Positions 8,139 through 52,422 of a stretch of 64,000 bases of DNA are shown in pieces. Made by a program: the position numbers and the translations under genes. Below the pieces are notes generated by a model. That model was not told the DNA's origin and searched no databases. It worked only from the letters and a program-made list of their open reading frames with translations. This stretch comes from Echinarachnius parma. Its lineage: Eukaryota > Echinodermata > Echinoidea > Clypeasteroida > Echinarachniidae. The stretch spans positions 1 through 64,000 of the forward strand of contig JBAMJV010004361.1 in assembly GCA_037951105.1 (NCBI GenBank), in the 5' to 3' direction. The number at the start of each line of letters is the position of its first letter. Position 1 is the stretch's first letter.

Positions 8139-8427
8139 AGTTGAGTTTTGTAATAGAGGGGGCGCTACAAGAAATAATTTTTTTGTGAGGTAATGAAAAA
8201 CTGAGTGTCAAATTTGAAAGAGCATACAATTTTAATGACAGAATAAACTTTGCTTGATCAAAATCGGTGCAGAGACGGCTTAAATATTCATAAATATAAC
8301 CATTAATTATTGTGGGGTCCCACAATAATTCAATAACTGTTGAACCAGCCGTAACAAAAAAATGCTTACACTTTTTCAAAAAATGTAAAAAAGATGTTTT
8401 TAACTGGTTGTTGATGATCTCTCTATT
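8139..8427 (+). repeat. Partial TTAA-type miniature element
   Basis: Matches the 5' half of the complete copy next to it: GTTGAGTTTTG, AGAGGG..GCGCTAC, GAGTGTCAAATTTGAAAGAG, AATGACAGAATAAACTTT, GATCAAAATCGGT and a GTGGGGTCCCAC hairpin. It lacks its terminal TTAA. The 126-codon minus-strand open frame here is repeat-derived and should not be called a gene. Confidence 0.7.
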
Positions 8428-8981
8428 TAAAGGGATAGGCTAGTTGAATTTTGGTATAGAGGGCGCTACACAAAATAATTTGTTTGTGAAAATGAAAAAC
8501 TGAGTGTCAAATTTGAAAGAGCATACAGTTTCAATGACAGAATACTTTATTTGATCAAAATCGGTTCAGAAATGGCTAGAATATCCAGAAACATAACCAT
8601 TTGTAATAATTGTGGGGCCCCACAATTATTCAATAATTTTGATTCAGCCGTTAAAAATTATTAAAAAATGCTTCCTCTTCTCAAAAATTTACAAAAGAGG
8701 TTTTGAAATAGTTGTTGATTATCTCTCTATCTAATCACTATTTCAACAAAACATCACATGCACAATATTGTATTTAAAATGGTTGAAACCAATGAGTTTT
8801 TAGAGAGCGCCTTCTTGAGTTTTACAGGCTTTTTACTTAGTCATTTGAATTTTTGTTATTCATTTCGAGCATGGTGTAGTTATAATTGTTAGTTTGTAGT
8901 ATAATGGTGCAGGTTTTGGTATCTAAAATTCAGTATGACCAAAACTGTACTCTCTTTACCAAAACTCAACTATCCCTTTAA
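8428..8981 (+). mobile_element. TTAA-flanked miniature element, full copy
   Basis: Starts TTAAAGGGATA and ends CTCAACTATCCCTTTAA, so the termini are inverted and flanked by TTAA. Internal landmarks: GAGGGCGCTACACAA near the left, a GTGGGGCCCCAC palindrome, AACAAAACATCACATGCACA in the middle, and CGAGCATGGTG near the right. About 554 bp with no open frame of note. TTAA target preference is typical of piggyBac-type transposition, which I infer rather than see. Confidence 0.75.
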
Positions 8982-9239
8982 TCATTATTTTAACAAAACA
9001 TCACATGCACAATTTTGTATTAAAAATGGTTGAATTTGAAACCAATGCGTTTTTCGAGAGCACCCTCTTGTGTTTTAACGGCTCTTTTTGAATGATAACA
9101 GGCTTTTTACTAGTAATAGTCGTTTGTAATTTGTGTACCTTTCGAGCATGGTGGAGTGTCTTGGTGCAGATTTTGGTTACTAAAATTCAGTTTGACCGAA
9201 ACTGTACTCTCTATACCATAACTCAACTATCCCTTTAAA
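8982..9239 (+). repeat. Partial TTAA-type miniature element (3' half)
   Basis: Repeats the 3' half of the preceding copy in the same orientation, from ACAAAACATCACATGCACA through CGAGCATGGTGGAGT to CTCAACTATCCCTTTAA. It makes a tandem head-to-tail arrangement with its neighbour. Confidence 0.7.
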
Positions 9240-11249
9240 ACATCAAACATTGATGATGAATGTGATCAATGTTTATATATCTTTATATCTTTATATATAT
9301 ATATAATTATACAAATTTACTGAAGTATATATATATAGGCACACATTATTCCAGGCTTACCAGATTGTGTATGCCACAAATATGAAGAAGGAAATCATAA
9401 TATAATTGTGTTTTCAAAATGACAAAGCAAACTTTACAAAACTACAAAAATGAGTGATCACACTAGGGAAACAGACTTTATAGACAGGTCCCATTACATT
9501 TGATTTTCTCTGCAGGGATCTCTTTTTTTTTGTGGCCACTATATAGGCAGGTTGGCTGTCAGGTGACTGCTTGAACAGGTTTGACTGTATACGTGGAAAG
9601 ACCTCTACCAAACAATCTCTGTATCACTATCAGTCTCTCGGAGACCATTAAAGTCGCGATCATGTTTCGTCCCGCTGCGTGCTGCGATCCAATATCAATG
9701 AATGACGTGACATACGTGTATTCATGACTGAAACATGGTTTCTGGTCGGTGGATCCGCACCATGATACTTTTACGACTATTGTCTGGTCATGGATATGGT
9801 CTAGTATATCAAATATGTTTTTAGATTTGATTTGGTAAAATGGAACGTTTTCTGAGAACTATACCTAATGTCTATCCTTATGTTTCAACAACATGTTCGA
9901 TTCTTCGAAATAAAAAAAAATACCCCAATTGAATCGAGACATTATTTGGATAAAACAACTAATGTCATGCCTACAATATAATCTATTTGTAACGAAAAAA
10001 TATTATTTACTCGGAGTAGTTATTAAAGTAATGAATATAGACACAATTACTTTTCCCAAAGTTGTCTTCATCGACATACCGCTGGACATTTCACATTTCG
10101 AGCCAAATTGAATTTGTGACGTCGAGACCTTGCAGATAGCGCCCCATGCAACCAGTACGTCTAGACAAGGTGGAGTAAAGACTATGGATTCTATTGTCTG
10201 TTACGTGTAGACGGCGTTACAACATAATGCACGTGAGAACTCGGGAAACTGTCTGAAAACTAACTGGAATACGCAGAATCTTTAATGAGAATTAAACATT
10301 CCAAGCATTCCTTAATTATTGTCTAGAGACTGTAATATTATTGGCTTCAGTACCAGGTTTTGTTGATTTGCCAATCCTTAAACATGAAACAATATATATA
10401 TAAAGAAAATGATAGAGCCTAGATATATTGATTACTACGGAATCGATTGGAAACGAGATAATATCGATATCAATATATTACACTCAGTTTGTTGTTGCTG
10501 TTGTTGGTGTTGTTGTTGCTGTTGTTGTTGTTTACGACGACGACGACGGTGGTCGGAGCGCGTACCACTGTGGCATGATCACAGCTCATCCCCAAAACGT
10601 GAACGCATTAGTAACTCTATATACATGTAGTATTATAGATCAGTGTGTGGTACATGATTGTATGACGATTATTAGAGGATTGCGTTTGTTCATTTTGATT
10701 TTGATAAGATTCCACCCCACTCACTTCACACAGGGTATACAAATTTGTGGTAATTTAAAATAGTGTAGTCGAAGGGGGTGTGCGTGTATGGGTGTAGAGA
10801 TTGGGGGGGGGGGGGGGGGGGGGTGCCCTCTACAGTCTCCCCTCTCACTGTCCCCCATACCAGTACCACCTTTGAATAAATTATTGCCCCTCTCAAGAGA
10901 TACAGAAAACAAATATTGTCAACATGCATGTCAAACCTGTATTAGCGGCACCTGTCTACAGCAGTCAACACGTCTTTGATGTCACCATCCGATAGACGCG
11001 GCCTAAGTTTATAACCCGAGCCGATTGACTATGGAGAGCACAGAGACTTGGCCACTCGAAAATACCAGAACACCTCAAATTGTTGGCGTATACAGGGTCA
11101 ATCTTGCGCACCAGGATTTTATTTTTGTAGCTTCAAGATATTGGTTGTGTGTTGTATATTTTCTCTCTCCATATTTTTTCCTAGGCAGAGGGAACGAGGG
11201 AGCCACGGCTGTTTTTAACACCACGCCCCCTGTCTACGCCACTATCCCT
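9240..11249. other. Intergenic, low-complexity islands only
   Basis: Holds a TA-rich microsatellite (about 9,275-9,340), fragments of the GGTTTGACTGTA family (about 9,540-9,592 and 10,927-10,970), a GTT/GCT trinucleotide stretch with a following GAC run (about 10,486-10,550) and a 21-base poly-G run (10,803-10,823). Cys- or Pro-rich short open frames here come from these repeats. Confidence 0.5.
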
Positions 11250-17327: not shown

Positions 17328-17879
17328 TTAAAGGGATAGTTGAGTTTTGGTATAGAGGGCGCTACACAAACAAATTTTTTGTGTGAGATAATGAAAAACT
17401 GAGGGTCAAATTCGAAAGAGCATACAATTTTAATGACAGAATAAATGTTTTTGATCAAAATCGGTTCAGAAATGGCCGATATATCCAAAAGATGGCCCCA
17501 CGATTATTCGAACTTTTTGAACCAGCCGTTAAATATTTGTTTTAATGCTTCCTCTTTTCACAGATTTACAAAAGAGGTTTTTAAATAGTTGTTGATTATC
17601 TCTCTATCTAATCACTATTTCAACAAAACATCACATGCACAATATTTTAATTAGGATGGTTGAAACCGATGAGTGTTTAGAGAGCGCCCTTTTGAGTTTT
17701 AACGGCTCTTTTTGAATGATAACAGGCTTTTTACTTAGTCATTTGTAATTTTGTATTCCTTTCGAGCATGGTGGAGTTATAACTATTAGTTTGTAATGTA
17801 AATGGTGCATGTTTTGGTTACTAAAATTCAGTTTGACCAAAACTGTACTCTCTTTACCAAAACTCAACTATCCCTTTAA
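17328..17879 (+). mobile_element. TTAA-flanked miniature element, full copy
   Basis: Begins TTAAAGGGATAGTTGAG and ends CTCAACTATCCCTTTAA, about 552 bp. It carries all the internal landmarks of the family, including GAGGGCGCTACACAA and CGAGCATGGTGGAGT. One of the best-preserved copies in the window. Confidence 0.8.
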
Positions 17880-20889: not shown

Positions 20890-21560
20890 ATCATGATGTC
20901 ACGACCACGCTGGTATGATCAATGGATCAATGATTCAAACTTTTTGTAGCACTGTGTCTTTATTTGATTACTTTTGATTTTGCTTTTCCACTTTTATCAC
21001 AAATACAAGCTATTCCGATATCATAACACATAAGTATTATCGCTCTAATGGATGTACGAAATGATAGTTCTATCCTTGCTGATATCATGACTACGCTGCT
21101 ATGATATTTAAATTAATATTAACCTCTCGAATCACTTTTTATTACCGTTTGAGTTTTGTTTTCCTTCATTTTATCGAAACTAATTAAGTTTTGAAATAAA
21201 TACTAGTGAACTAATGCCGAGCTATTCCGTTTAGTACGAATAATGTCGAGCTGTTCCGATTACTACGAATAATGCCGAGCCGTCTGATGTCATAATCTTT
21301 TGGATAATACGAAATGATTTCATGATCGCGCGACTATGATGTTAAACGATCAACAATTATTGTTACTTCTTGAAGCACCGATCTTTAGTTGATTACCATA
21401 TTTAGCTTTTCACTTTTATCGCAAATATAGGAAATGAATACTTGTGAACCAATGACAATGCGAGTTACTTCGAGTAATGCCGAGCTAGTCCGATTTGTTA
21501 ATCGGCTTATCCGATTTCTGTTCGTCAAATCTCGGCGGAAGTGCAATGGGTATCCAACTA
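20890..21560. repeat. Degenerate tandem repeat, three units
   Basis: Units start with GAT.TCATGA(C/T)(C/T)(A/G)CGC.(G)CTATGAT near 20,892, 21,080 and 21,315. Each continues to TTTTCACTTTTATCGCAAATA or a diverged form, and then GCCGAGCT(A)(T/G)TCCGAT. Periods are about 190-235 bp. Confidence 0.55.
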
Positions 21561-22914: not shown

Positions 22915-23430
22915 TTTAAAGGGGAAGTACAGTTTTGGTAAGGCTGAACTTTAGTAACTAAAGCTGCATAATAACATTACAAACTAATAGTATAACTCCA
23001 CCATGCTGGAAAGGTATATAAAATTACAAACGACTACGTAAAAGGCCTGTTATCATTCAAAAAGAGCCGTTAAAACTCAAGAGGACGTGCTCTAAAAAAA
23101 GCATCGGTTTCAACCATTTTTCATACAAAATTATGCATGTGATGTTTGTTGAAATAATGATTAAATAGAGAAATCATCAACAACTATTTAAAAAGTGTAA
23201 GCATTTATTTAATGAATACAAAAATAAAATAAATCTGGGCCCCAGATTTATTCCGATCGGATATATTTATTGATATTTCGGCCGTTCTGAACCGATTTTG
23301 ATCAAATAAAGTTTATTCTGTCATTAAAATTGTATGCTCTTTCAAATTTCACACTCAGTTTTTCATTATCTCACACAAAAATCATTTTGTGCAGGGCCCT
23401 CTATACCAAAACTGAACCATTACCCCTTTA
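22915..23430 (-). mobile_element. TTAA-flanked miniature element, full copy, inverted
   Basis: Opposite orientation to the 8,428 and 17,328 copies. The segment with CACCATGCTGGAAAGG comes first, and the GATCAAATAAAGTTTATTCTG segment last. Ends are TTTAAAGGGGAAGTACAG and CCATTACCCCTTTAA. About 516 bp. Confidence 0.7.
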
Positions 23431-23869
23431 AAACATACCATGAATGCGTGGTAAAAAAAACATTCTTAGGTTAGCAAAATACTAATTAAATGTCTTAATG
23501 GATTAAATATTGAATTGAATAACCACCTGTATTTCTGGGCCTGTATTCATGAATCCACACTAGCTTAGTTTCAACCGAAGCTTATTTTGTATGATATGCA
23601 ACACAAAGTTTTCATAGTCACTAACTATGGTTATCTGGGTAAGCAATTCTTACCCACTATGTATGTTAAAGGTACACTTGAGTATTGGTACTTCCCCAAA
23701 AAACATTGTAAGGGTTTTGGTTGGTATTAATTCCATTTGAAAGTTCATTGAATAAAACATGTGAAATTAGAATCATTCCCTTTTGAATGCTTTCATAGTT
23801 GTAAAATATGATTTCAAAATATTGTATTTATATATCGTTTAGCCATGCGATGCTTATACACTTCTTTCA
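23431..23869. other. Intergenic, probable repeat debris
   Basis: Begins after the inverted miniature element. From about 23,668 the phrase TTAAAGGTACACTTGAGTAT resembles a decayed terminus of the same family. No gene seen. Confidence 0.4.
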
Positions 23870-24181
23870 AAAAAAAATTCAAAAGAGATTTAAAAAAAAA
23901 GGTAGTTGATGATATCTCTATTTAATCATTAATTTAACAAAACATCACTTGCACAATTTTGTATAAAAAATGGTTGAAACCTATGAGTTTTTAGAGGGCG
24001 TCCTCTTGAGTTTTAATGGCTATTTTTTGAATGATAACCGGCTATTTTGTAATGATAACCGGCTTTTACTTAGTCGTTTGTAATTATGTAGACCTTTCGA
24101 GCATGGTGGAGTGTGTAATGTAATGGTGCAGGTTTTGGTTACTAGCATCCAGTTTGACCAAAACTCAACTATCTCTTTAAC
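23870..24181 (+). repeat. Partial TTAA-type miniature element (3' half)
   Basis: Contains AACAAAACATCACTTGCACA, TGGTTGAAACC, CGAGCATGGTGGAGTG and a terminal CTCAACTATCTCTTTAA. A small internal duplication of TAATGATAACCGGCT is visible near 24,030-24,065. Confidence 0.65.
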
Positions 24182-30230: not shown

Positions 30231-31102
30231 TTAGTACATGGGGCGGCCACGAGGTGGCCTCATGGGGGGAGGGGGCCCACCCCTCATACTGTACGCCATG
30301 CTCTGTGCCTGCAGGGCCTGTACCTGCTGAGGGGTCATGCCAGTGGGAGGGATGTTGGCTGGGTTGATCCCCGCTGCCATCAGGCTGGCCGCCCCAGCCA
30401 TCTGAATCCCCTGCTGGACGTTTTGCGGTGCCTGTTTCAGCTGCTGCATGGTGCGGATAGCCTCCGCCTGGGCGAGGGCCAGGTTCTGCTGATCCATGGA
30501 GGCCGCTCCCACTTGCTGCATTCGGTTCGCTGCCTGCTGCATGACATTTCCTGGCATCATTGGTGGCCTTGGGGCCATGGCCATGCCCCTCTGCATAGGA
30601 TTGGCCTGCATTGGGGGCTGCGCAATGGGCACTGCCTGTTGGGGCTGAGATGCGCCGTTGTTGCCACCAAAGTTCCGCAAAAGATTAGGTCCCGTCTGGA
30701 TGAGGTTGTCCAGAGCCTTCTTGACGTTAGGGTTGTCCAGGTTGAGGGAGCTAGACACTGGGGTAGATGGGCCGCTCTGGGTTAGCGTGGTAGCTTGCAT
30801 GCTGGCCTGGGGGGAGGACATCAGGGGCATAGGGGATTGGGACGATATGAGACCCTGGCTAACAGCACGAGCAACTGATGTGGGAGTGGACAATAAGGAT
30901 TGTTTGGCAAGCCCAGCCAGCATTGCTTGCCTATTGACCATTGCCGTGGATGCTGCTACGGGACCATTTTGGACCTTTGGTGCTACTGCAGCCTGGGCCT
31001 CTGCAGCACCGACGTTGCTGCCTATCAGGCTTAGAATCTTGGCTTGTAAAGCAGTGGAGTCGTCTGGTTTTGGCTCTGTCTTGGGTGGTGGAGGTGGGGC
31101 AG
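30231..31102 (-). CDS. NCOA5: NCOA5 terminal coding exon (Q/M/P-rich tail)
   Basis: Encodes a proline run, ALQAKILSLIGSNVGAAEAQ, an Ala/Ser/Gln-rich linker, NLDNPNVKKALDNLIQTGPN, a Gln/Met-rich tract and a final RPPRGRPMY, then TAA at 30,231-30,233. The NVKKALDNLIQTGP motif aligns with NPSVQKALDTLIQSGP near the human C-terminus. Two plus-strand open frames of 185 and 175 codons lie antisense to it and are composition shadows. Confidence 0.94.
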
Positions 31103-34100
31103 CTGTAACAGAAATTAAGCCCAAAATGTTGTACATCAAAAAAATTGCATGGAGTGAAACAAGAGCAATTAGAGCAGCAGGCTGAATGAAGTTTACACGT
31201 ATGTCCCAATTATCTTTTCCCACATTTTTACAGTTAGGGGCAGGGCAATCTGAATAAATCTGCTCCTTACTTTGTCCAAAAGATAATTACCAACCCAATC
31301 TTCTTTAATAACACATAAAGTAGCTTTAATTTATCCCAACAAGTTAAAGGGAAAGATCATATGTCAGTGAAACGGCCCTTACCTTTCTCTTTTTTCCTCG
31401 GAGGTTGTCCCTGGTCTTCGGCCATGCGTTCTCTCATCTCCTCGAGGAATGTGATGACCCGGTCGACCTCGCTGACGGTCAGTTGGCGGCCGTCAGCCAG
31501 CAGACTGAACAGCTGCGACAGCGTCAACTCGACAGACTGACCATCTGCACCGGTTTTCACCCCGGGGGCGGAGCCTGAGGCCACGCCCCCTCGCTTATCT
31601 CGCAGCTCTTGCATGTAGCGGTCATAGTTTCTTGTAATAAGGCTCATTGCATCGTCCAGGGGCATGTTCCTGTGTTCTATTTGGGGTAGAGATAATATTC
31701 CGGTTTGGAGGGGAGAGGTTAATGGGGAAAACATGTGACAGATCAGAACAGCATTTTCAATAAAACGCAAGTACTGCCTGCCAAACACAGCTTAACCAGT
31801 AATATCGAGCACTCATAGTTACTTTAAAGTAATGCAATTACGTCGTCCAGATGCAAATTTCCATTTGTTATAGTGGTAGAGATAAATGGGGGAAAACCTC
31901 CTGCAATAGAGTTGAATACTGTACATCTAGAAAGAATACAATCAAAGACAGGGCACAGATTATAAAGAAAGAAATATTATAGTGAATCAACATCCAATCA
32001 GGTCAAAATGATTATGTGATGATGATCTGTTAGTTCTGTTCCGCTATATAAATGAAAAATAATATGATAATTTATCTGAAAAAGGAATAAGACAGACATA
32101 AAAACAAAATGGACAATATTCACAATCATAATTCAAAGCATTTAATGTAAATTTAAAATATAGATAATGCACACCCAATATCTGACACAGACAGACAACC
32201 AAAGACACACAGCTACATGTAGTAGTCTTGCAATCATTGCATGGCACATGTAGTGTATCCACCTTAATCATAATAATTAAATATTTTTTCTTTATAATAT
32301 ATATATCATGCATCCAACATCACAAAAACAAATGATATAAAAAAAGTATCAAACATTTTGTTCAAGCTTTATTTCTTACAACTTTAATAAAATTCCTAAA
32401 ATATCTGTGAAAAAAAGGAATACTGTTACAGGTTAATACATCGGGACCTTGGATTACATTTCTTTCCCATGCCCCACCGCTTAAAAACAAATGTGAATTG
32501 GAATGTTCTATCTTTTTACAGCACTTCTCGGCACAACATTGGTGCACCTGCCAAATTCAATTTCTGTGCCCTGTTCCTTCAGGTGAAAATCACTTTCAGT
32601 GAAATTTGACTCTTTCTTACCAAGTCTACAATAGGACTTTGTCTTGACTCGGACCCACTGCTGGTCAAGCTGTGTGGCATGCTTGTTATCAAATTATCTT
32701 GAATTTATCCGTTTGACCTTTGTGTTAACCCTTTTTGGCATTCGGAAAGGAAAGATATGACAATAGGATCCATAATCATGTAATTGTGAAATCTGAGCAG
32801 AGTAAAAACAGTCGAGCAACTGCTGCTTTGTTTCATCTTTATTGTATTTGACAGATGAATAAAGGTGTGTATGTTTAATACACATGTGCCAAGAAACAGA
32901 AAATAGTGACACATTAACTAGTACACACAAAAACAGATACAAGTGTGCTCCCTACACATACACCCAACGTTTACCAAGCACACATGCAAATTACACCACT
33001 GCACCAAAATGTAAATTTAGATACACATTCATACACACAATTAAAGATAGAACACATTAATCTCAATTTTCAAACTATTTCTACTCGCATGCAAACAAAA
33101 AAGAAGTAATAATGTGTAAGATGTATATCTCTCTGTAAGCTAGGATTTTAAATAACTTTTTTTGCTTTGTGTCATCAGGCATTCAAGCTAATGTTTCTGG
33201 ATCCCAGACCTGTTAAAAGAAAATATACACAGTATGAACTGAATTCTGCTTTACTTTTCATGACGCAAATGCTGTAATGCTGTGCCGTAATTCACTTCAT
33301 TGTATCATACAGTTCAAAATAAACGTGACAATTTGAAACGTTACCCTTGATCAATCATCACAATCATAGATGTATTGCGCTTACACTAAATTTGAAAGTA
33401 AACATTCTTGCTTCATGATATTATACACATTATTGTTATTTTAGACATTGATATACCCATATCTGTTGTTTACCGTGCCTTGCCATTTTGAAATGTTTTA
33501 TTTTTTCATATTTGACAGTGGACCAGGGTTTTCTATGTTTCACATCTTAGATTCTTCTGAATTCAATAAAGATGACAGGAGGCACAATGGACAAATCAAA
33601 CTGTTGAATGTTTTTGTAGTACGAATGAATATCACGTCACGTGACTGTGAACACACAGAAAGTATTATAAATGAGCTATCAAAGAAGCGTAAGCAAATCA
33701 TTTTTAATTTTTCCTCACTGTTTTATAATGATACGAGAGAATCGATTTTTTGGGGTAAAATATGAACATTTTGAATGTAACTTATAAATGTTTTAGACAT
33801 GCATTTAAGTCATTGGAGTCTTACATCAGTTCCATCACACAATTCACATTTCATGTTTTTTGTTAAGTGCAATTACGAAATATATTCAACAGTCGTATTC
33901 ACAAATCAGTCATCAATCATCATCAACATTGTCATCGCCATCATCATCATCGTCGTCGTTGTCATCATCATTGAATGCTTGCAATCAGTAACATATAATT
34001 CTAGCTTTTAACGTGTAAATCATTACTAACTACATGTACAGTAGTACAGGGCTCACTCACATGTTTTGGGCCGCAAACATTTAGAATTTAAATATAACAT

Positions 34101-37100
34101 TACTATATTTCACGGGTATGAATGATCCAGAAGCAAAGGAACCACAGATAGTATAGAACCATGACACATTGTAATCATCAATCAATTATCAATATCATCA
34201 ATTATTATTATTATTATCATCATCAAATCAGGAATAGAGAAATTTCAAATGAGATTTAAAAAGCTGATGGTTCTGCAGCAGTGATCTCAGGAATCAAACT
34301 TGGGCTGTTTCAAATAAAAAGATGTACAGATACATTTTTTCAATGCAAATTATTTCACTCGCATGAATAGGGCACGCAAAACAAAACTAAATAGTGCTGA
34401 AACTCTGTAAATTTGTCAATAACACCAATATCACATCACCACTACAATTATTATCATCAAATATGGGGGAAAGAATTTACACACTAGATAACAAAAGCAA
34501 GTGTTCCTGCATCAATGTTCTCAGGAATCAAACTCGAGGCTGTTTTATAAGGAAACATGGATAATTTTGTTTCAATGAAGATCTCGTTATGGCACGCTCA
34601 TCTGTGACTGTGACCTAAAAAAAAAAGCTAAACATGACAGAAAATATAAACAAGAAATACTTGTCTTGGAACTGAGCAGCACAACATTCAAACACAGCCA
34701 CACTCCATCTGAACTCGTACACTTGAATACACCATAGCAGAAAGGTTTATAAATCTTGGTTTAGATATGCATGATTCATGGATATAGAGATATTAAAATA
34801 AAATAACATGGACATTTGCCTTTAAAGAGATATAAACTTAAAAAATTAAATGCAAGCACAAACTCTCATTTCATACACTAAGAACTAATTTTAAAATTCA
34901 TTCTCTATTAATGCAGAATATAGTTTCTAAGTGTACTATTTGCCAAGTTTAACAAAACAAATTACAAGAATGAATGGATACATATTAATTTATGTTAATT
35001 TGTTTTTAATATTGCCATTTTATACTTTTCTTCTTGTACTCCTCCTAGGTCGAATAGGTAGAAAAAAAGAAATTTACAAGCACCAAGATGACACTGAGCA
35101 ATAGCAAACCACTCACACATAAAAAACAAACACAAACAAAAAAAAATTTCTAGAAATAAGCTCACTGGAAAGAACCTGCAAAGATAAAAATGATACATAA
35201 CATGTGCATTTCATAATTCATTCAAGAAGCATAGTATTAAAAGGAATTCTAAAAATACCAACGGTTCCAAAAAATACATAACTCATTCTCACTCGCCAAA
35301 ATTTCATTTTCGGATGCACTCAATACATAGAATATGAGATCACACAAACATTATTTTCTTTATACGGTACTGTACACACAAATAATCTCCATGCATTCAA
35401 GATGAATTAGCTTTCAGCATGAAGTTCTTAATCTTGCTTACAGACGCAATGCCGAAGTTTAGTACATTTCTGTTAGAACGTAACGTAAGGATCATATGCA
35501 GCGGATCGTTTGAAAGCGCGCATTTTGCCATTAAAAATGCCTTGCATTTTGCAAAAAATTCTAGGACTTTCACTTTTGTTGGAATAATTTTGATTCAAAG
35601 TATGATTTCCGTAAAAAATCAAGATTTGAATCAAACTTCATGGAATAGGGTACACTTTCAACACTTCTCAAATTGAAGAGTTAGAAAGGTTTTCATGAAA
35701 CAATGTACATTATATTCTCACTGAGAAAAAATATGCGGAAGAAAAATGTTTTTTAAGAGCTAGAAGAGATATATCGCTCCGAAATTAAACACAATACGGT
35801 ACCGTTCTACCAAATCGTTTATAGCGCAATACACAATGAACGACTCCCGTTACTTGACATATTAGTTTTTCAACGCTGCAACGCAAATAGCATGACAAAA
35901 GTATGTGCACATATTGGAGTTGCCTACCTACACCTAAAAACCCTTAGGATGCAAATCTTACCTTGTGGAGTGCCATGCAAGATATTCAGCGTCAATGAGC
36001 GGTGGATCTCGTGCGTATTGGACACCATGATGGCATAGAGGGCGCCATTCCTCGTAGCACCATCCAGCACGGCAGAGATGGATGCCTCGGCGTTGATGAA
36101 CATCATGTCCGTGGTGATGCCTAGACCGTTCAGTCGACGCTCAACCATCTCTGCATAGCCTCTGTTTAAAAAGAGAAGAAATTTTGATAAATTTGATTTG
36201 ATCTTTCTAAAATATCATGATTTACTTTTTGAACTAGAAGTTATGGAAAACTGTGCATGCTTCACATATTTTTTTCAGATTTACAATTGTCCACAAGATA
36301 TTTTTATTAGATTTGAAATCGGGTAGGCTGTACAACTCCCTTGGGTTTTATTTCAATTAATTTTGTAAACATAAAATAGGTGATACGCAGTACCACTTCC
36401 AAAAAGTAAACCAAATTATAAAATCTTTATCATAAAATATATGTGTAAAGCTTTCTTCTTTCTGAAGGGTACCACCAATACAACAAAGACTCTCTTGAAG
36501 ACGTGTAGGCCTATATGACATTGGCAATTTATGAAATAAAAATCTTACCTGGTGCAACTAATATGTGACCGGCCAAAGCAAAACCCGGCACTTGTCGGTA
36601 ATTCATGTTTTGAAGAAATTGGCATTTTAAGTTCACACAAAGTGTGTAAAAGACCTATGATTGTAAAATTGAAACAATCATATCTTCGCCAATTATTGAC
36701 CAATTAGTTAAAACAAAGCATCAAATGAAAGCTTGTGATGAGGCCTTTGTAATGGTAAAATCTACATTTTGATATTTACTGACAAGTGCCAGGTTTTGCT
36801 ATAGCCGGTCACATATATATTTGTTAATGATGGACATACAATCACACAGTGACATGGAAAAGAAAATACACATTGATTAGAAGATGGAGTTAAAATGAAT
36901 AAAATATAATACATAATAAGACCACATTTCTTTTGTTTTTCGTCTATAAACCAGTGCAGTTGCATTGAGATGTTGTTACTCACTTCTGAATTTTAGCTGC
37001 GGCTGAGCCATAACTGAAATAAATGAGAAGATAGCGACAGGTAAGCCATACATCATTCATACCCATGACGGGTCAAATTTATGTGAATTCAATAATTCCA

Positions 37101-40100
37101 CAGAGAATCAAATTCATGCTTCATGTCGAACCCAAAGAAACATTTACACTTTGGTTATGCTGACATTATATTAAGTAAAGCATATCTAGAATGAAAGATT
37201 AGTAAAAAATAAAATTAAAAAAATCATTTTCAGGTAAATTTACAGAAGGCTGTAAATTTGGTAAGATATTGAAATTGTTGAGTTATTCTGTGTATATAAA
37301 AATTAACACTGATAAACATTATGCTAACTTTTCATGAGGTATGAATGATAAAGGGCTTGCCTGTATAAGCTTCGACTTGCCTCCCCATTATTAAAATGGA
37401 TTACATTTGCAAACTGCTTTATTTGTGATTTCTGGTGTTTTTTTAGTTACATAAAGATACACATGAACTGTTTTAATGTTTTAAGAAGCCTAATTTTAAT
37501 ATTTACTCATGTGATGAATCAGAGGGAAAGAAAGAAAGTTGCTTGATTACACAGAGGCTCATAAATATATTGCTAGTCCGCGCCACAATTCGCTTGCATT
37601 ATTACCCTGGTCCTTGCTGGTACAGTTCAAACCAGCACAATTATCTTACTCACCATCAAAACTCCCCAGGGAGCATACCAGCTTGCTGTTAATTTTACTG
37701 TAACTAATGCAAACATTTTAACTCTACCAATACCATGCAAGGAAAAACAGCACTTGAGCTAGTGCAAACATCAGAGAGAGGTAGCTACTCATTTGACAAC
37801 AAAAAACAAAACAAAACATAGGGGTAAGTACATTTAAAAAGCAACAACATAATGTAATACATAGGGTGTGCCCCCCCCCCCTCCCATTCAGTCTGTCCAA
37901 GCTATGCCCTGACAGATAAGATGTCCACATATTAGCATTGACATAGATCTGCGGGGAGTTATTTTGTACCAGGGGAATGAATGGATAGATCACCCACCCC
38001 CCTGAACAAAAGATATTGCCTCCTGTATGGTGTTATACTAACACTAAGATAAATTTCAGCATCGATTTAAAGTACAAATCAATGCTGAAATCGATTTCAG
38101 TGTTAAGTGAAACACCCCCCAGATCTACGCCAGTGCACATGAGTTGTTAAACTCACCTCTGCTGTTTGCTGAGCACCAGTATCTCACAGTCCACAGGCTT
38201 GCCGCTGACTGGGGGCAGGTAGTCAGAGACGGTGGTAGATGGAGGGGGTCCTGAACGCCGTTCAAAGCTCTCGGATGGCCGCTCTGCTGGGCGCTCTGCT
38301 GGGCGCTCCGCTGGGCGGTCCGCTGGCCGCTCAGATCTGTCACGGGAGTATGGATCACGGCTGTCACGGGCATACGGATCTCTCCTGGAAAATAGATAAA
38401 TATATATATATTTTTTTAAAACTTGACTTAATTTCGCTGTGACAAAATATGTTTAACCTGTTGCTTACGGGAACCGGATGGGCTATGTACAAAGTCTATG
38501 GGGATTTTAGAATCTTATATTGAACGGGTTTGCTCATTTTAATTTATATTATTTCTGAATTAGCTTTCTCTATGTTTGAATTTACATTGAATTCAACTCA
38601 CCTTTCACTATACGGATCCCTCTCTCTGTCCCGATCCAGTGACAGACGATCTCTGCCGTCTCTCGGTGCATCTCTCTCTGGAAGCCTATCACGATCACCA
38701 AGACGATCACGTTCAGCAAGACGATCTCGATCACCAAGACGGTCTCGATCAGCAAGGCGATCACGCTCGTAATCTTTGTAGTACGGGTCATCCCGTCGGT
38801 AGGGGTCGTCACGTAAGTATGGATCATCGCGTGCATCCCGAGGGTCACGAATTGGATCCCGTGAATCACGGATAGGATCACGAGGATCACGAATTGGATC
38901 CCGTGAATCTCTCGGTGGATCCCGTGAATCTCTCGGTGGATCCCGTGAATCACGGATAGGATCACGACCATCTCGCAGTGGATCACGTGAATCCCGCAGC
39001 GGGTCCCGGAGTGGGTCACGCAGTGGATCCCTTGCATCCCTATCCCTGAGTGGATCACGAAGGGGGTCACGTAACGGATCACGCAGGGGATCCCGAAGCG
39101 GATCACGCAGGGGATCGCGCATATCTCGGTCACGGTCTCGTTCACGGTCGCGTGGCAGTGGAGGAGGAAGGGATCTGTCGTACGGGTCTCTCCTGTCATC
39201 TGGGAAACGTTCCATGTCACGCCTGAAATTCAATAGCACAAGACAAACAAGGTTTTATATAATGCACTGCATACAAAAAACAAATGTGAATACAAAAATG
39301 GTGTATCAACTATGAGGCGACATGTCAACTGAGGCATTTTAATAACACTTTATACAGATAACAGGAAAAATTATTGACATGTTCAACAACAAAAAACACA
39401 TTTATTCTTACTTACTATCGGAATATTGAAAATCATACATCATATTCCACGGCTATTTTTGCTCAACTTTCTTTATCTCTATAAAATTATGATGATAATA
39501 TGAAGTAATGCTCCAACAGTTTGAAATAATGAAAGATTTGTGGCTGAGTTTTGATCAGAAGTTCTTACCTTGCTGGGTCATCTCTGTAGTACGGATCTCT
39601 GAAGCGTTCTTCATAGCGCTCACGTTCTCTGTCGCGCAACGGGGAACGCTCTCTAGGTCGTGGCGGTGGAGGGAAGTCCCTGCCGTATGGGCCATAGGGA
39701 TCAAAATCTCTGGCCTCCCGGCTGAAAGTGTCAAAGAAAAATAATTAATACATTAATTGTCGGCATTTATTCCTGATTACACTTGAGTTGCAAAGGTAGG
39801 CGTATGTAAAGAATGTTTCAAAGTATTTATATAATTTGTTCATTATATTTCCTCTCATTTAGCAGCGAAACAGAATTTCATGGCCATCTACCGCTAGTCA
39901 CAAACTTGTAGACGAAATGGTCTCCTTACGGAAATTGAGTTCCACAGTATCTCCGACACCAAGGACTTTGCTCGCTTAGCCAAGCGTAACCAAGACCACT
40001 CCACCAAGCCTCTGTCATGGAGACATGACTTACAAAGGGCCACAAGTCCTAGAAGGGTGTAGCGCATACTCTAATCTGTGGCAACTCTTTACGAGACCAT

Positions 40101-45773: not shown

Positions 45774-45781
45774 ACTGTAGT
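45774..45781. repeat. 8-bp target site duplication, left
   Basis: ACTGTAGT, directly outside the left terminal inverted repeat of the P-type element and identical to 51,065-51,072. Confidence 0.88.
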
Positions 45782-45817
45782 CATAGAGTTATATATAGGT
45801 ACTAGAGTGCGGACTCG
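45782..45817 (+). repeat. Left 36-bp terminal inverted repeat of P-type element
   Basis: Identical to the reverse complement of 51,029-51,064 over all 36 positions. Contains TATATATA (from about 45,789) and GTGCGGACTCG at its inner end. Confidence 0.92.
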
Positions 45818-46046
45818 CAATGGCTCGCGCGCAAAGGCTCTGTGATCGCATGGAGCATAGTCCGCCATTATTATGTCGGGCAATGTGCCGCGAGTCTCCG
45901 CACGCGCTGCACATGCCCTTCGCACTGACTGATGATACAAGTCGGTGTTTGGCCTTGATTTCGCAAGACACAATCTGAAAATTACAATGAAGATTATAAA
46001 CATATATATACATGTACTGCTCGGAGTCGAAATTTATAGAAAACAA

Positions 46047-46113
46047 CGAGAATAAATGAAATACTCCGTGGGAAAATTTGTTTTTTTCCACAGAGTATTT
46101 CATTTATTCTCGT
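46047..46113. repeat. Perfect 20+ bp hairpin inside P-type element
   Basis: CGAGAATAAATGAAATACTC is followed after about 25 bases by its exact complement. Extra pairing (CGTGG/CCACAG) continues toward the loop. May be a small foldback insertion. Confidence 0.75.
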
Positions 46114-46650
46114 GTTTTATATACATATATAATATGTGCATATAATATATAGATTTTTTATTTTTATTTATTTATTAATTTTTTTTTTGTTTTGGGGGGG
46201 GATAATTGTTCTATACTACAAGTATTCTCTTTATTTTGTTCACTTGAAGCTATAGTGTCAAGCCTGGATTTATTACGCGATGGAGCATGCTCTTCACTAT
46301 TGTATTGTTATGGATTTATGTGTGTGAATGTGTGTTTGTTGAGGAGGGGTGGGTTGGAAAGATGAACTTCCCCTGCGAATAGGAAAGTTTCAATTTAAAA
46401 TGTCAAAATAAGCTTTGTATTTTCCCACACATTCAACCATCCATTCAACCAACCATTCATTTATCCATCCTTCAAGCATGCCATTCATCCACCAATCTAT
46501 CAAATCATATCAGCACACTTTTTGTTCATTGCAGAAAATTTCCTAAATCAAATGTAGTCTGTTGCCCTTTCACAAAATCAGGTTCATGTACTTTGTCGAT
46601 TCATTTCTAAAAGTAAAAAAAAAAAAATGAACACATAAAAAAATCAAATT

Positions 46651-46830
46651 GTACAGCGGACTCTCGTTATAAAGAGGTCGGATATAAGTAACAAAACCTG
46701 CGTATAACAAGGTAATTTGCTGGTCCCAACTATTTATATATTTTTTTGTTTAGCCTGAATGAGAAACTTGATATAACAAGTCAATTTTCTTGGTCCCAAG
46801 GACCTTGTTATAACGAGATTCCACTGTACT
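46651..46830. mobile_element. 'CAGTGGAACC' miniature element, diverged copy
   Basis: Left end TACAGCGGACTCTCGTTATA and right end TATAACGAGATTCCACTGTA are inverted. Inner GGTCC(C/A)A and CTTGTTATA phrases match the copies at 59,790-59,922 and 60,640-60,761. Confidence 0.65.
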
Positions 46831-47183
46831 TCAATCATTAAATTCAATAAATAATTGTACATATATCTCCTCATAAAATATTAAGGGATTCTCTATAACA
46901 CAGACACAGCATTTCTCACATTTCAATATTGCTATAGGCCAATTCACGAATCACGATACAAAATTATTTATACTCATTTAAATAAACAGTCAGTCAATGA
47001 ACATGTGATCTAAATGTAAATTTATTGATCTTAGAGAAATAACCCAATGGTTTTTTCCATAGATAAATTCAATTCAAACAAATCAATAAATAGTTCTGGT
47101 TAATTTCTCAGTTTTGTCCATCATAATGGTGGTTTTAAATCAAAGAGCAGATGCTTTATACCTCTTATACATGTATAATAATG

Positions 47184-47634
47184 TTAAAGGGGCAGTTTAG
47201 TTTTGGTAAGGCTGAACTTTAGTAGCCAAAACCTGCACAGTAACATTATAAACTAATAGTTATAAATCCACCATGCTCGAAAGGTATACACAATTACAAA
47301 CGACTAAGTAAAAATGCTGTTATCATTCAAAAAGAGCCATTAAAACACAAGAGGGCGCTTTTAAAAAAAGACTTGGTTTCAACCATTTTTCAAAGTGCAA
47401 GCATTTTTTTTTTTTTTTTCAAAGAATCATCTAATTATTTGGGCCCCAAATAATTATAAGATCAGATATATTTATCAATATTTCCGCCGTTTCTGGGTCG
47501 ATTTTGACCAAATAAAGTTTATTCTGCCATTCAAATTGCATGTTCTCTCAAATTCGACACTCAGTTTTTTATTACCTCACAAAAAAATTGTGATGTGCAG
47601 TGCCCTCTCTACCAAAACTAAACTACCCCTTTAA
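47184..47634 (-). mobile_element. TTAA-flanked miniature element, inverted copy
   Basis: Ends TTAAAGGGGCAGTTTAG and CTAAACTACCCCTTTAA. Contains CACCATGCTCGAAAGG and GACCAAATAAAGTTTATTCT. Inserted within the P-type element. Confidence 0.72.
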
Positions 47635-48018
47635 ATTTCTATTTACCCTATCATAGATAAACTACTTGGATACAAGAACAGTCCCATTGAGAACGAAGAC
47701 CACATTTAATGTATTGCAATGATGGAATAAATCTCTATTGTATCATCGAATTGGATACAGAAATGTCATTATTTTTTACTAAAATTAAGTGAAACTTCAA
47801 GTTTTGTATAGACAAAATAAAATATGAACATTTGGCAATTCATTCCAATCTAAAAAGTTTCCAATTTGCACTAAAATAGTGATCTTCAATCTGTTCATAT
47901 GTTGCCAATTTAGGATTCTCAGATTATTTTGGCTAAAATAACTCCTATGAGCGGTCGCAACATTTAACTGTGACAATTGAGGTCTAATTTGGGGCAGTTT
48001 ATTTTTCTCTTTATTCTG

Positions 48019-48130
48019 GAACAATCCCCCCCCCCCCCCCCCATTATAATTTTTTTTGGGAAAATTTGTTGATGTCAACAACAAAAAGTGTCAGAGGTCC
48101 CCCTCCCCTCCCCCCCCCCCCCCCCCCCAA
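48019..48130. repeat. Two poly-C runs
   Basis: C runs at about 48,027-48,042 and 48,109-48,128, separated by about 65 bp of T/A-rich sequence. Gly-rich minus-strand open frames across them are artefacts. Confidence 0.8.
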
Positions 48131-48610
48131 GAAGTTGCAAGGCATTTTGCCCTCCCTAAGCAAACACCCTGGCGCCGCCCCTGATTCCAGCAGACATGAT
48201 GATAAGGAAAATAGATATGTATTGAATTTTGTGTGATGTTTGATTGAAACAGCAAGAAGATAAAATCAGTATAGCACATCTCTACAAGAAAGTATTGAAT
48301 CTATTACTATATTGAGCCATTTATATTACTAGTTGCTCTCACTTTTTGTGCATCTCTCAAATTGTGGGCACACTAAAATTACCAGGTTTGGGGATAACTT
48401 CCACAAGAGTTGTATGCATACAGTGAGAAAAGAAAACCTCTAGTTGGATGTATCTACTATAAGCAGGCTTTTTTCCTGCAACATACAAAGTGTAGCTGGC
48501 TTTTCAGTTTTTAGAAAGAAAAAAAGACTGCAACAATTACAAATCAATCACTACTGAACTTCCCCTTTAAGGCTGAAATCCCTCGTGTTTTATTTTGTTT
48601 TTCTGTTAGT

Positions 48611-50908
48611 TTACTCCCCAAGAAATAAGCTTTTCTTGGTCAGGATGTGCCGTTCAGAGTCTTTGTTGTGCTTTACATAGCGTCCAGTGAACAGGCGACC
48701 ATGGTGATGTAAGAGAGTTCTGATGCAGAGTCCACTGATTTGCTTTACAAGCCGATTCCCATGATCATCTTCACTCTCCAGGTTCTACTCACAGAAGTGC
48801 TCTTCAAGATCGATGAACACTTCGCTTCTTATTGAAGACATTACCTGCCCTTGGACCTCGTCAATGAACTTGTTTGATGTCTTCATAGGCCCATGGTTTA
48901 CCAAGGCCCTCCTGCATGATAGAAAATAGATTTTTTAATTAACAGAAAATATTCATTAAAAAATATGGCAACTGAAGTTGTCACAAACTCCACAGAACAC
49001 AAAATGTTGCCATTTCTGCAAAGAACATTTTAGCAATAAGCATAAATTTCTTTTAAAATCATTCCACATGTAAATTATGAAATTGTATAATCACATTACA
49101 AAATGTACATTTGTGACCTTACACCACAAAACGACCAATAAGTCGGGAAAACTGATTTTGCTGCTTTTCATAAAACATTACAATAGAAGTCATTACCTTT
49201 AGAAGGGTATATCATTCGTCACATTTGGACTAAGCAAACCCTCTCAAAATGAACACCAACAATTTGGAATATGGCTGAAGCATTTTTAAAATAAGGGAGA
49301 AACGGGCCATTTAAAAGATCAGCTTCCATTAAAGCGCTGTAATAAGATCACATTTATTGGATGAAAAATAATATTTAAACGTGATTTCCGACGCTCAAAA
49401 TGTTACAGAAGCTAGATTATGATATGCTTATTCAGGAAATACCAATATCCTAAATCTCATATTTTAAACAAAATTTACCTATTTTAGCTAATAAAAGAGA
49501 AACTACCACAGCGACATAACGGTCGTTTTGTGGTGTAAGGTCACATTTTCAAAGATGGCAAATAAATTAGTTCAAAGGTAGATTTTATAAGAGAAGGGAA
49601 AATCTCTCCGGTCATTTTATAATGGATCGTGGCAAAAACTGTTTCATTTTATTTTTTTTTGGAGATATTTTTGCCTTTTGCATAAGACTGTTACGAAAAT
49701 TGGAGAGAGCTATTCTTAAAATCAAGAACAGCAGTGGAATTTAATCAAAAAAAAGGAAAGGTGTGCAAATGAGGGCCACAACAATTAAAACAAAAGTAAA
49801 CACCCTTTTTTTTTGTATTTCAACTTAGAATAGATGTCTTTAATAAAAAAAGACTTTATTTTCCTGACGGAATCAATCCTTACCTCACTTACACTATAGG
49901 AAAAAAAACAGATACCGATGTGGAATTAAACCTGCAGCCTATCATTTCAAGTCACCACTCTTAACTCACCGAGCTGTGCAAGATTTGCTGCAATGCCGAG
50001 GTCAGGATTCATGTCCTTTGTTCATTGCACGGTACAAACTCAGACCGCATCATAATAATTCTCTCCAGTAAGAATTAGAGAGCGTGCTCAACTGTGTCAC
50101 AGAAATGACTGCACCCCCCCATGGCTAGCTTTAAATCATGATAATGCCGCTACTAAGTACTACTAGTACTAGTACTAGTATACATCTGTAGTCATCTAGA
50201 CTGAATGATATGGTGATATCATATGAAGTTCAATATAAAATGCTTAAAATTATTAAAAACAAAAATGAGAAACTCACCTCTCATATCCTCTTTCAGGAAA
50301 TGTTCACTGCAGAGAAAATTTCCCTGGTGTGAAGTCATCCCGGCTGATCTTCACGAGCCACTGTCAATGCTGAATTGCCAAGGGGTAGTCTAAAATAAAA
50401 AAAAAAAGAGAAATACCAAAACAATAATTCTGTGCAAGTAATGAAGTATCATGGGGTAACCTACAGTACTTAAATTATTAAATGGACACCTTTTTTTCAA
50501 GCTTATGAATATTACACTCAAAACCACTGGAACAACAAAGTTTTCTCAATGCGGAACCTTCTGTACTTTAAATAATAACATTCTTGTAAAATCCACTGCA
50601 GAATATTTAGAATTCATCTTCAAATGCCGGTTTGAAAATACCAGTTAGTTACTTAGCTTAGGAGGGTACTCACTACTCATCAAGCGCGAGTCACGGGTAG
50701 CTAGCCGCGTAGGCTGCCGGCGCCGAAGTATGGCTACACTTGTGAACTGGTAGCGCCCCAAAGTCAAATATCCCCTAAATGCTGATTGTTAATATTAAAT
50801 TCAATAAACTTAGAGCCTACTTAGTAAAGGAACTTACTTGAGAACGATTATGCCACTTCTCTTCACGTATCTGTTCCTTCAACCGTATTCGATACACGAA
50901 TTCGGCAT
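48611..50908 (-). pseudogene. THAP-domain P-type transposase, broken
   Basis: Three exons remain with intact splice signals: 50,908-50,838 (donor CTCAA|GTAAGT), 50,389-50,278 (TTTTAG|ACTACC to GAGAG|GTGAGT) and 48,911-48,611 (CATGCAG|GAGG). Exon 1 begins MPNSCIEYG, but the second THAP cysteine codon is TGA. Exon 2 holds PLGNSALT, then WLVKISRDDFTPGKFS in another frame, then LCSEHFLKEDM in a third, so there are two frameshifts. These are the C2CH zinc-finger landmarks (C-x4-C, W, F-x-P, C-x2-H). Exon 3 encodes about 100 codons with one in-frame TAG at 48,787-48,785, and its last part (LVKQISGLCIRTLLHHHGRL, HILTKKSLFLGE) resembles the C-terminal end of THAP9/P-type transposases. The catalytic middle is absent. 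Dead gene. Confidence 0.85.
49112..49545. mobile_element. Miniature element with 25-bp inverted ends
   Basis: TGTGACCTTACACCACAAAA plus CGACC at the left and the exact complement at the right (49,521-49,545). 434 bp, non-coding, inside the large intron of the THAP pseudogene. Confidence 0.8.
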
Positions 50909-51028
50909 TTTGAAGGTCTGCTTGCTGGCTGTCAAGTGTCATGTCCACGGTACGTACCGTGCGTGCGACGCGACTTTGCCCGACAAATCAATGGCGGCCG
51001 CTGCTCCACGTTGTCACAGCGATTCGGC

Positions 51029-51064
51029 CGAGTCCGCACTCTAGTACCTATATATAACTCTATG
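51029..51064 (-). repeat. Right 36-bp terminal inverted repeat of P-type element
   Basis: Exact complement of the left end. In the direction of the transposase gene it carries a TATATATA box about 130-140 bp before the start codon at 50,908, so it may double as the core promoter. Confidence 0.92.
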
Positions 51065-51072
51065 ACTGTAGT
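51065..51072. repeat. 8-bp target site duplication, right
   Basis: ACTGTAGT, identical to 45,774-45,781 and directly outside the right terminal repeat. Confidence 0.88.
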
Positions 51073-51591
51073 TGAGTTTTAGTATAGAGGGCGCTACTAA
51101 AACAACTGAGTGTCACATTCGAAAGAGCATACAATTTTAATGACAAAATAAACTTTATTTGATCAAAATCGGTTCAGAAATGGCTGAAATATCCATAAAC
51201 ATAACCATTCGTAATAAATGTGGGGCCCCACAAGTAGGCCTATTCGACAATTTTGAACCAGCCGTTACAAATTTTTTTAAAGGCTTCCTCTTTTCAAAAA
51301 TTCACAAAAGTGGTTTTTAAATAGTTGATAATCTCTCTATCTAATCACTATTTCAACATAACATCACATGTACAATATTCTATTTAAAATGGTTGAAACC
51401 GTTGTGTGCACAGAATGCGCCCTCTTGAGTTTTAACGGATCTTTTTGAATGATAACAGGCTAATATACTTAGTTATTTGTAATTTTGTATTCCTTTTGAG
51501 CATCGGGTGGAGTTATAATTATTAATTTGTAATGTAATGGTGCGGGTTTTGCTTACTAAAACTATGTTTGACCAAAACTATATCCCTTTAA
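51073..51591 (+). repeat. TTAA-type miniature element lacking its left tip
   Basis: Starts TGAGTTTTAGTATAGAGGGC, so the first dozen bases of the family consensus (TTAAAGGGATAGT) are missing or replaced by the P-element target site. Ends ATATCCCTTTAA. Landmarks are otherwise complete. Confidence 0.72.
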
Positions 51592-51825
51592 TCATTATTT
51601 CAACAAAACATCACATGCATGCATAATTTTGTGAGGAAAATGGTTGAAACCAATGGCATGCTTTTTTAGAGAGCGCCCTTTTGTGTTTTAATGGCTCTTT
51701 TTGAATGATAACAGATTTTTTACTTATAGTCATTTGTAATTTTCTATACCTTTCGAGCATGGTGGAGTTATGGTTAGTAAAGCTCAGCCCCAAAACTGTA
51801 CTACCCCTTTTACCTTTAATTTGTA
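51592..51825 (+). repeat. Partial TTAA-type miniature element (3' half)
   Basis: Begins TCATTATTTCAACAAAACATC and ends near CTGTACTACCCCTTTTA. Same tandem 3'-half arrangement as at 8,982-9,239. Confidence 0.65.
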
Positions 51826-51837
51826 GCCTACGTAAAG

Positions 51838-52422
51838 CTTAAATGGATAGTTGAGTACTGGTAAAGAGAGTACAGTTTTGGTCAAACTGAATTTTAGTAA
51901 TCAAAACCTCCACCATTACATTACAAACTAATAATTATAACTCCACCATGCTCGAAAGGAATAAAACATTCCGGGAAAACATTACAAATGACTAAGTAAA
52001 AAGCCTGTTATCATTTTTAAAAAGAGCCGTTAAAACTCAAGAGGGCGCTCCCTAAACACTCATCGGTTTCAACCATTTCAAATAAGATATTGTGCATGTG
52101 ATGTTTTGTTGAAATAGTGATTAGATGGAAAAATAATCAAAACTATCTAAAAAGCTTTTACGTACATTTTTGAAAAGAGGAAGCATTTAAAAACATTTCT
52201 AACGGCTGATTCAAAATTGTCTAATAATTGTGGGGCCCCACATTTATTACAAATGGTTGTTTATGGATATTTCAGCCATTTCTGAACCGATTTTGATCAA
52301 ATAAAGTTTATTCTGTCATTAAAATTGTATGCTCTTTCGAATTCGACACTCAGTTTTTCATTATCTCACAAACAAATATTTTGTGTAGCGCCCTCTATAG
52401 GAAAACTCAACTATCCCTTTAA
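51838..52422 (-). mobile_element. TTAA-flanked miniature element, full inverted copy
   Basis: Starts TTAAATGGATAGTTGAGTAC and ends CTCAACTATCCCTTTAA. Contains CACCATGCTCGAAAGG, ATCACTATTTC complement and a GTGGGGCCCCAC palindrome. Inverted relative to the copies at 51,073-51,591. Confidence 0.78.

What the first reader, a model, noticed from the sequence alone, without database searches (positions are those of the whole stretch)
45774..51072. Precisely delimited P-superfamily transposon with a THAP transposase relic
Seen directly: a perfect 36-bp terminal inverted repeat starting CATAGAG at 45,782 and 51,064, immediately flanked on both sides by the identical 8-mer ACTGTAGT. Inside, a minus-strand gene starts 157 bp from one end and encodes THAP zinc-finger landmarks. 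The 8-bp duplication, the CA start and the THAP gene are the defining traits of the P superfamily. The transposase core is absent, so this copy is non-autonomous and dead, but it provides the exact ends with which to find live relatives.
Basis: partly seen in the sequence, partly recalled or inferred. Interest (0 to 1): 0.88.

Follow-up and report, generated by a model that had tools for sequence, protein, structure and literature searches.

The report
Hitch-hiking P-element transposon, recently multiplied
The stretch is one of several dozen closely similar copies of a broken P-type jumping gene, apparently moved by an enzyme from a fuller relative in the same animal genome; it looks like a new family of a well-known kind of transposon.

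Summary
The P-superfamily reading holds. The same genome has 82 ends within 3 mismatches of the 36-mer, 76 exact, against 0 for a reversed control. Identical 8-bp duplications flank 15 of 18 paired copies read. In 17 aligned copies, mean pairwise divergence by region is 0.6-1.2%, and all 17 share the same THAP stop and have no open frame in THAP exon 2. The gene was thus already dead when the family spread: it moved in trans. A relative on contig C7678 has the exact 36-bp right end, stop-free THAP exons 1-2, a 764-aa P-type core frame with four Pfam P-element domains, and the last exon. The window copy is that layout minus two internal deletions. Copy C5637, with both ends and a duplication, keeps the start of the core. 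No copy with both ends and the whole core was seen. Correction: the gene is dead, but the family was recently mobile. Novelty: new family, known superfamily.

The parts
45774..45781 (.). left target-site duplication ACTGTAGT
45782..45817 (+). left 36-bp terminal inverted repeat (CATAGAG...)
   Evidence: 82 ends genome-wide within 3 mismatches
45840..45886 (+). left imperfect subterminal inverted repeat
46041..46118 (.). hairpin (36-nt arms, 6-nt loop), present in other copies too
46651..46829 (.). nested element with 29-nt inverted arms; a 267-bp stretch around it is absent in L026, L027 and L028
47184..47634 (.). nested MITE with TTAA on both sides; the site with a single TTAA is seen in C7678
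48548..48549 (.). junction of internal deletion 2 (2,961 bp present in C7678); a MITE tip lies beside it
48611..48913 (-). relic of the last exon (C-terminus) of the P transposase, with one internal TAG
   Evidence: C7678 exon 92% identical
49113..49544 (.). nested 432-bp element, absent in 16 of 16 other aligned copies, ATTT duplicated
49798..49799 (.). junction of internal deletion 1 (6,397 bp of C7678, which include the whole 764-aa core frame)
50278..50389 (-). relic of THAP exon 2 (WLVKISRDDFT...LCSEHF), stops in all three frames
50838..50908 (-). relic of exon 1, first part of THAP (MPNSCIEYG then TGA); GTAAGT follows
50973..51019 (-). right imperfect subterminal inverted repeat
51029..51064 (-). 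right 36-bp terminal inverted repeat
51065..51072 (.). right target-site duplication ACTGTAGT

Best explanation
The stretch is an insertion of a non-autonomous, internally deleted member of a P-superfamily DNA transposon family. The fuller layout, seen on contig C7678, is: 36-bp right TIR; exons 1 and 2, which together encode about the first two thirds of a THAP DNA-binding domain; a core exon (HTH, RNase H halves and a GTP-binding insertion); an intron; a last exon; and a long 3' part. The window copy lost the core in one deletion (49798|49799) and a 3' piece in a second (48548|48549), and its remaining exons carry stops and frame breaks. It keeps both ends, so transposase made by a fuller copy could cut it out and insert it elsewhere, duplicating 8 bp. 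An already defective ancestor multiplied recently into several dozen closely similar copies. Shown: ends, duplications, copies, shared defects, the fuller relative, collinear blocks with the two gaps. Inferred: the exon splicing, that the gaps are deletions in the window lineage, that C7678-type transposase (or a close one) does the moving, and that movement may still occur.
For: TIR and duplication. 82 genomic ends within 3 mismatches: 76 exact, 6 with one mismatch, none with two or three; control 0. 34 inverted pairs of 4.6-10.5 kb, 14 ends unpaired. Identical 8-mers in the window copy, 13 of 16 fetched pairs and C5637: 15 of 18, at 14 sites. Mean pairwise divergence by region 0.6-1.2%. TGA at codon 10 of exon 1 and no open frame in exon 2 in 17 of 17 aligned copies. 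TAG in the last exon in 16 of 17; 34 of 46 genome-wide rows hold a TAG. C7678: exact right TIR, exons 1+2 THAP 42.7 bits over cut-off 23.9, core GBD 4.7e-45, RNaseH_N 3.6e-43, HTH 2.1e-22, RNaseH_C 7.4e-18, last exon 92% identical without a stop. Of 47 contigs with a TIR and 49 with a PF21787 match, C7678 is the only one with both. Blocks of the window copy map in order to C7678. C5637 joins both exact TIRs, duplication CTCGCGAC, THAP exon relics and 109 aa of the core at 86%. The nested TTAA MITE has its empty site in C7678.
Against: C7678's left end was not seen: homology ends at element base 707 and part of that contig reads N, so no copy with both ends and the whole core was found. The last third of THAP (Pfam positions 61-87) was not located in C7678: its two exons match positions 1-60, and an AVPTIF-like motif search of L052 and L054 found none. 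3 of 16 fetched pairs (L013, L021, L028) have unlike 8-mers; L013 and L021 share a right flank. Element 4018-5283 is only 82-83% like C7678 while other shared blocks are 86-95%, so C7678 is not the direct parent. C5637's exon 1 is also broken. No empty allele of the window site is in the assembly. Early tests of the last exon were weak: a profile of four P C-termini did not beat the rest of the window, and at least 10 of 300 shuffled queries equalled the L050 C-terminus match (top ten printed).
Confidence: 0.93

Rival explanations
1. Another superfamily with 8-bp duplications (hAT-like) or with THAP (Kolobok) owns the ends, and the P-type exons are captured host or foreign sequence.
For: 8-bp duplications alone are not unique to P (recalled); the family carries several nested foreign elements.
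Against: The right TIR, THAP exons, core and last exon lie in order on C7678, and C5637 joins both TIRs to THAP exon relics and part of the core. The C7678 core matches four P-type Pfam families and no other at E <= 0.01. Kolobok duplicates TTAA (recalled); here 8 varied bases are duplicated.
Confidence: 0.04
2. The 36-bp repeats and 8-mers arose by a local inversion or duplication, not by transposition.
For: No empty allele of this site is in the assembly.
Against: 82 ends on 47 contigs, with different matching 8-mers at 14 sites read. The base after the right duplication lies in a MITE whose other window copies read through TAGT|TGAG, though the MITE's first 9 bases are missing on the left flank. 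L019's 8-mer GGTCAAAC is single in MITE copies in the window, with only 4 bases of match beyond it.
Confidence: 0.01
3. The family is now extinct: C7678 is immobile or broken outside the parts read, and no transposase able to move these ends remains.
For: C7678's left end and the last third of its THAP domain were not seen; C191's exon 1 carries TGA and C5637's exon 1 is broken; C7678 is the only contig with both a TIR and a PF21787 match.
Against: The C7678 core, exons 1 and 2 and last exon read without stops; the 17 aligned copies are about 99% alike, mostly with matching duplications.
Confidence: 0.5

Closest known systems
Zebrafish Pdre2 / THAP9 (P superfamily; abstract and passages of PMC10983969)
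   Same: TIR beginning CATA, 8-bp duplications, subterminal inverted repeats, THAP plus P-type transposase, internally deleted copies in the genome.
   Different: Pdre2's TIR is 13 bp (CATACCTGTCAAC) against 36 bp here; here at least 34 paired copies, about 99% alike in the 17 aligned.
Drosophila P element and its internally deleted KP-type derivatives (recalled, not compared in any call)
   Same: CA-ended TIR, 8-bp duplication, THAP transposase split into exons, non-autonomous copies made by internal deletion and moved in trans.
   Different: 31-bp TIR and 2.9 kb full length (recalled) against 36 bp and about 13.7 kb, nested insertions included, from element base 707 to the right end on C7678.
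THAP9-like genes with a Tnp_P_element domain in echinoderms (PMC13228809, passages)
   Same: THAP plus Tnp_P_element domain in one gene.
   Different: Those are described as genes; here the THAP exons sit inside mobile ends.

Membership tests
P superfamily | 8-bp target-site duplication | tested here: met
   Window copy, 13 of 16 fetched pairs, and C5637
P superfamily | TIR starting CA | tested here: met
   CATAGAG in the window; 82 of 82 ends start CATA, though they were found with this 36-mer
P superfamily | subterminal inverted repeats | tested here: met
   77% over 47 nt, above 500 shuffles
P superfamily | THAP DNA-binding domain in the transposase | tested here: met
   C7678 exons 1+2: 42.7 bits, over cut-off, model positions 1-60 of 87; window relic 21.6 bits, under cut-off; the last third not located
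P superfamily | P-type core (HTH, RNase H, GTP-binding insertion) | tested here: met
   Not met in the window copy itself; met in the C7678 relative, and its start in two-ended C5637. Membership is as a non-autonomous derivative
P superfamily | transposition of these ends by this transposase | not testable with these tools
   needs cells or population data
Kolobok | TTAA duplication | tested here: not met
   8 varied bases duplicated; TTAA recalled as the Kolobok trait
hAT | hAT-type transposase | tested here: not met
   only P-type families on the C7678 core; in the window copy only the right half of the minus frames and ten ORFs were scanned, with none

The most novel reading that the evidence does not exclude
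The family is still mobile: a C7678-type copy supplies a working THAP/P transposase that both cuts and inserts these ends. That would be a working P-element system in a non-insect animal, where the zebrafish enzyme was reported to excise but not to integrate (PMC10983969, abstract and passages).
Probability: 0.3. Interest if true: 0.7.

Novelty: new member of a known kind. Interest (0 to 1): 0.46.

Why it matters
P elements are best known from flies; outside insects most known cases are old relics or single host genes (recalled). Here the exact ends, dozens of young copies, two differently deleted forms and a relative with a readable transposase are in one genome, so the cycle of a non-insect P family (source, deletion derivatives, trans-mobilised burst) can be dated and tested directly.

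Tried and rejected
A profile of four P-transposase C-termini did not separate the relic exon from the rest of the window. The match became clear only with a profile of the L020 exon and three of its four database relatives (P0001-P0003; P0004 left out). A Pfam scan of the four gave nothing over a cut-off; P0003's precomputed label PF22824 was not reproduced. A viral-contig scan gave one match of 16 residues, L001, not used. PDB search with the last exon gave nothing credible; with the bridged THAP exon, THAP1 and THAP2 at E 0.038-0.23. I first took a minus-strand frame starting MTLDSQQ as exon 1; the right frame starts MPNSC. The first search for these ends around 20 transposase loci (1.5 kb each side) found none, C7678 included, because its end lies further off. 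I considered that 48549 was the original 3' boundary of another family; the L055 blocks showed a gap in the window copy instead. Some frames printed were not the THAP frame; the counts were redone.

Literature: searches (listings with abstract starts) showed no paper describing this family; of PMC10983969 and PMC13228809 only passages were read. The library lacks most subscription papers, and no Repbase copy was searched, so an earlier description cannot be excluded.
Full report
What is in the sequence. The inverted homology goes on: 45840-45886 pairs with 50973-51019 at 77%, above all 500 shuffles. The minus strand carries an ATG at base 157 from the right end (50908). It begins MPNSCIEYG and then runs into TGA. 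A second exon at 50278-50389 carries WLVKISRDDFT and LCSEHF in different frames, with stops in all three. Read through for a search, Pfam's THAP model gives 21.6 bits, just under its cut-off of 23.9. A further relic lies at about 48611-48913: an exon with one TAG. Its stop-free version from copy L020 has four relatives in the protein database at 56-61% identity (E 6.8e-32 to 3.9e-27). A profile of that exon and three of the four matches the C-terminus of a P-type transposase gene on contig C6339 (L050) at E 1.8e-5 among 1,658 frames, against 0.58 for the best of one shuffle of each frame. Two weaker earlier tests went against it or were undecided.

The genome. The window lies in a 1.2-Gb assembly of 14,790 contigs. 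The first 327 bases from the left duplication inward gave 253 candidates, of which 40 were scored; thirteen rows, the window copy and twelve others, are 100% identical as printed. The 36-mer with up to three mismatches has 82 ends on 47 contigs, 76 exact and 6 with one mismatch, while the reversed control has none. Paired by contig they make 34 inverted pairs of 4.6-10.5 kb, with 14 ends unpaired. I fetched 20 places; 16 held both ends. In 13 of 16 the two 8-mers are identical and differ from place to place; L013, L021 and L028 are unlike. With the window copy and C5637 that is 15 of 18. L026 and L027 look like one place on two contigs, so the 15 are 14 sites. Among the 17 aligned copies (the window's and 16 fetched) mean pairwise divergence in five regions is 0.6-1.2%, single pairs up to 4% in the shortest region.

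Dead gene, recent spread. In 17 of 17 aligned copies exon 1 has TGA at codon 10 and exon 2 has no open frame. The last-exon TAG is in 16 of 17, L020 being the exception; genome-wide 34 of 46 rows hold a TAG (46 of 46 candidates scored, 44 contigs). These defects predate the spread, so the copies must have been moved by transposase from elsewhere; that inference is the standard logic for non-autonomous elements. The window copy also has a nested 432-bp insertion (49113-49544, ATTT duplicated), absent in 16 of 16 others.

The fuller relative. PF21787 (P-type RNase H) has 68 matches in the genome, 93 of 93 candidates scored. One, on C7678, sits near a stop-free last exon 92% identical to the relic. 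C7678 is the only contig with both a TIR and a PF21787 match. Reading it piece by piece shows, on the minus strand: an exact 36-bp right end at 21220-21255; exons 1 and 2 without stops, giving MPNSCIAYGCKNRY...LCSEHF, THAP 42.7 bits over model positions 1-60 of 87; a 764-aa core frame with GBD, RNaseH_N, HTH and RNaseH_C; the last exon; and the 3' part as far as element base 707. Part of the contig beyond reads N and no left end was seen. The last third of THAP was not located. Splicing is inferred from splice-like sequences, not shown.

How the window copy was made. Its base 4017 (49798) matches C7678 13464 and the next base matches 19862: 6,397 bp with the whole core are missing. Base 2767 (48548) matches 9694 and the next matches 12656: 2,961 bp are missing, with the tip of a MITE left at the joint. 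The TTAA MITE at 47184-47634 is absent from C7678, where a single TTAA is found. C5637 is a differently deleted copy: both ends exact, CTCGCGAC on both sides, THAP exon relics and 109 aa of the core at 86% identity, then a jump past the rest of the core and the last exon. It ties the core to a two-ended element. C191 has a right end with one mismatch, a stop-free last exon and, next to it, the same 3' sequence as C7678, but TGA in exon 1.

Limits. No copy was seen with both ends and the whole core. Element 4018-5283 is 82-83% like C7678, the other shared blocks 86-95%, so C7678 is a cousin and the genealogy is mosaic. The left flank of the window site occurs once in the assembly, so no empty allele is at hand. 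The right flank begins inside a MITE whose other window copies read through the insertion point, and L019's target 8-mer is single in MITE copies of the window, with four bases of match beyond it; both are partial empty-site evidence.

Verdict. An ordinary mechanism, well supported: an internally deleted P element, of a family I found no description of, multiplied recently by borrowed transposase. The point of interest is that a fuller relative is still readable.

Noticed in passing
8139-9240, 17328-17879, 22916-24180, 47184-47634, 51073-52422: A MITE family with TTAA ends (AGGG[AG]TAGTT...) has many copies in the window; the window P copy and L019 are inserted in copies of it. The one at the window insertion lacks its first 9 bases.
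   Followed up: partly
30231-39254 (minus): Exons that look like a nuclear receptor coactivator 5 (ncoa5) gene, by recall of the protein; the transposon lies upstream of its first recognisable exon.
   Followed up: no
L019 1-2628 and 3533-6161: A 99.9% identical tandem duplication that repeats the left part of the element with its GGTCAAAC; real or an assembly effect.
   Followed up: partly
L013 and L021: Two copies share the right flank (GCTGGGAT) but have different left flanks, and group apart in the tree, as ectopic recombination or mis-assembly would give.
   Followed up: partly
G000: 68 P-type RNase H matches, some with open frames of 600-787 aa; a few carry other Cys-rich N-terminal regions. 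A diverse P-type complement.
   Followed up: no
L018 and L054: The right flanks of a deleted copy (C2999) and of C7678 share the first 15 nt (TTACGAACTGGCTTA) and then diverge; chance, repeat target or re-insertion not resolved.
   Followed up: partly
49113-49544: A 432-bp element with 34-nt inverted ends (GTGACCTTACACC) and ATTT duplicated, seen only in the window copy among 17; its family was not identified.
   Followed up: partly
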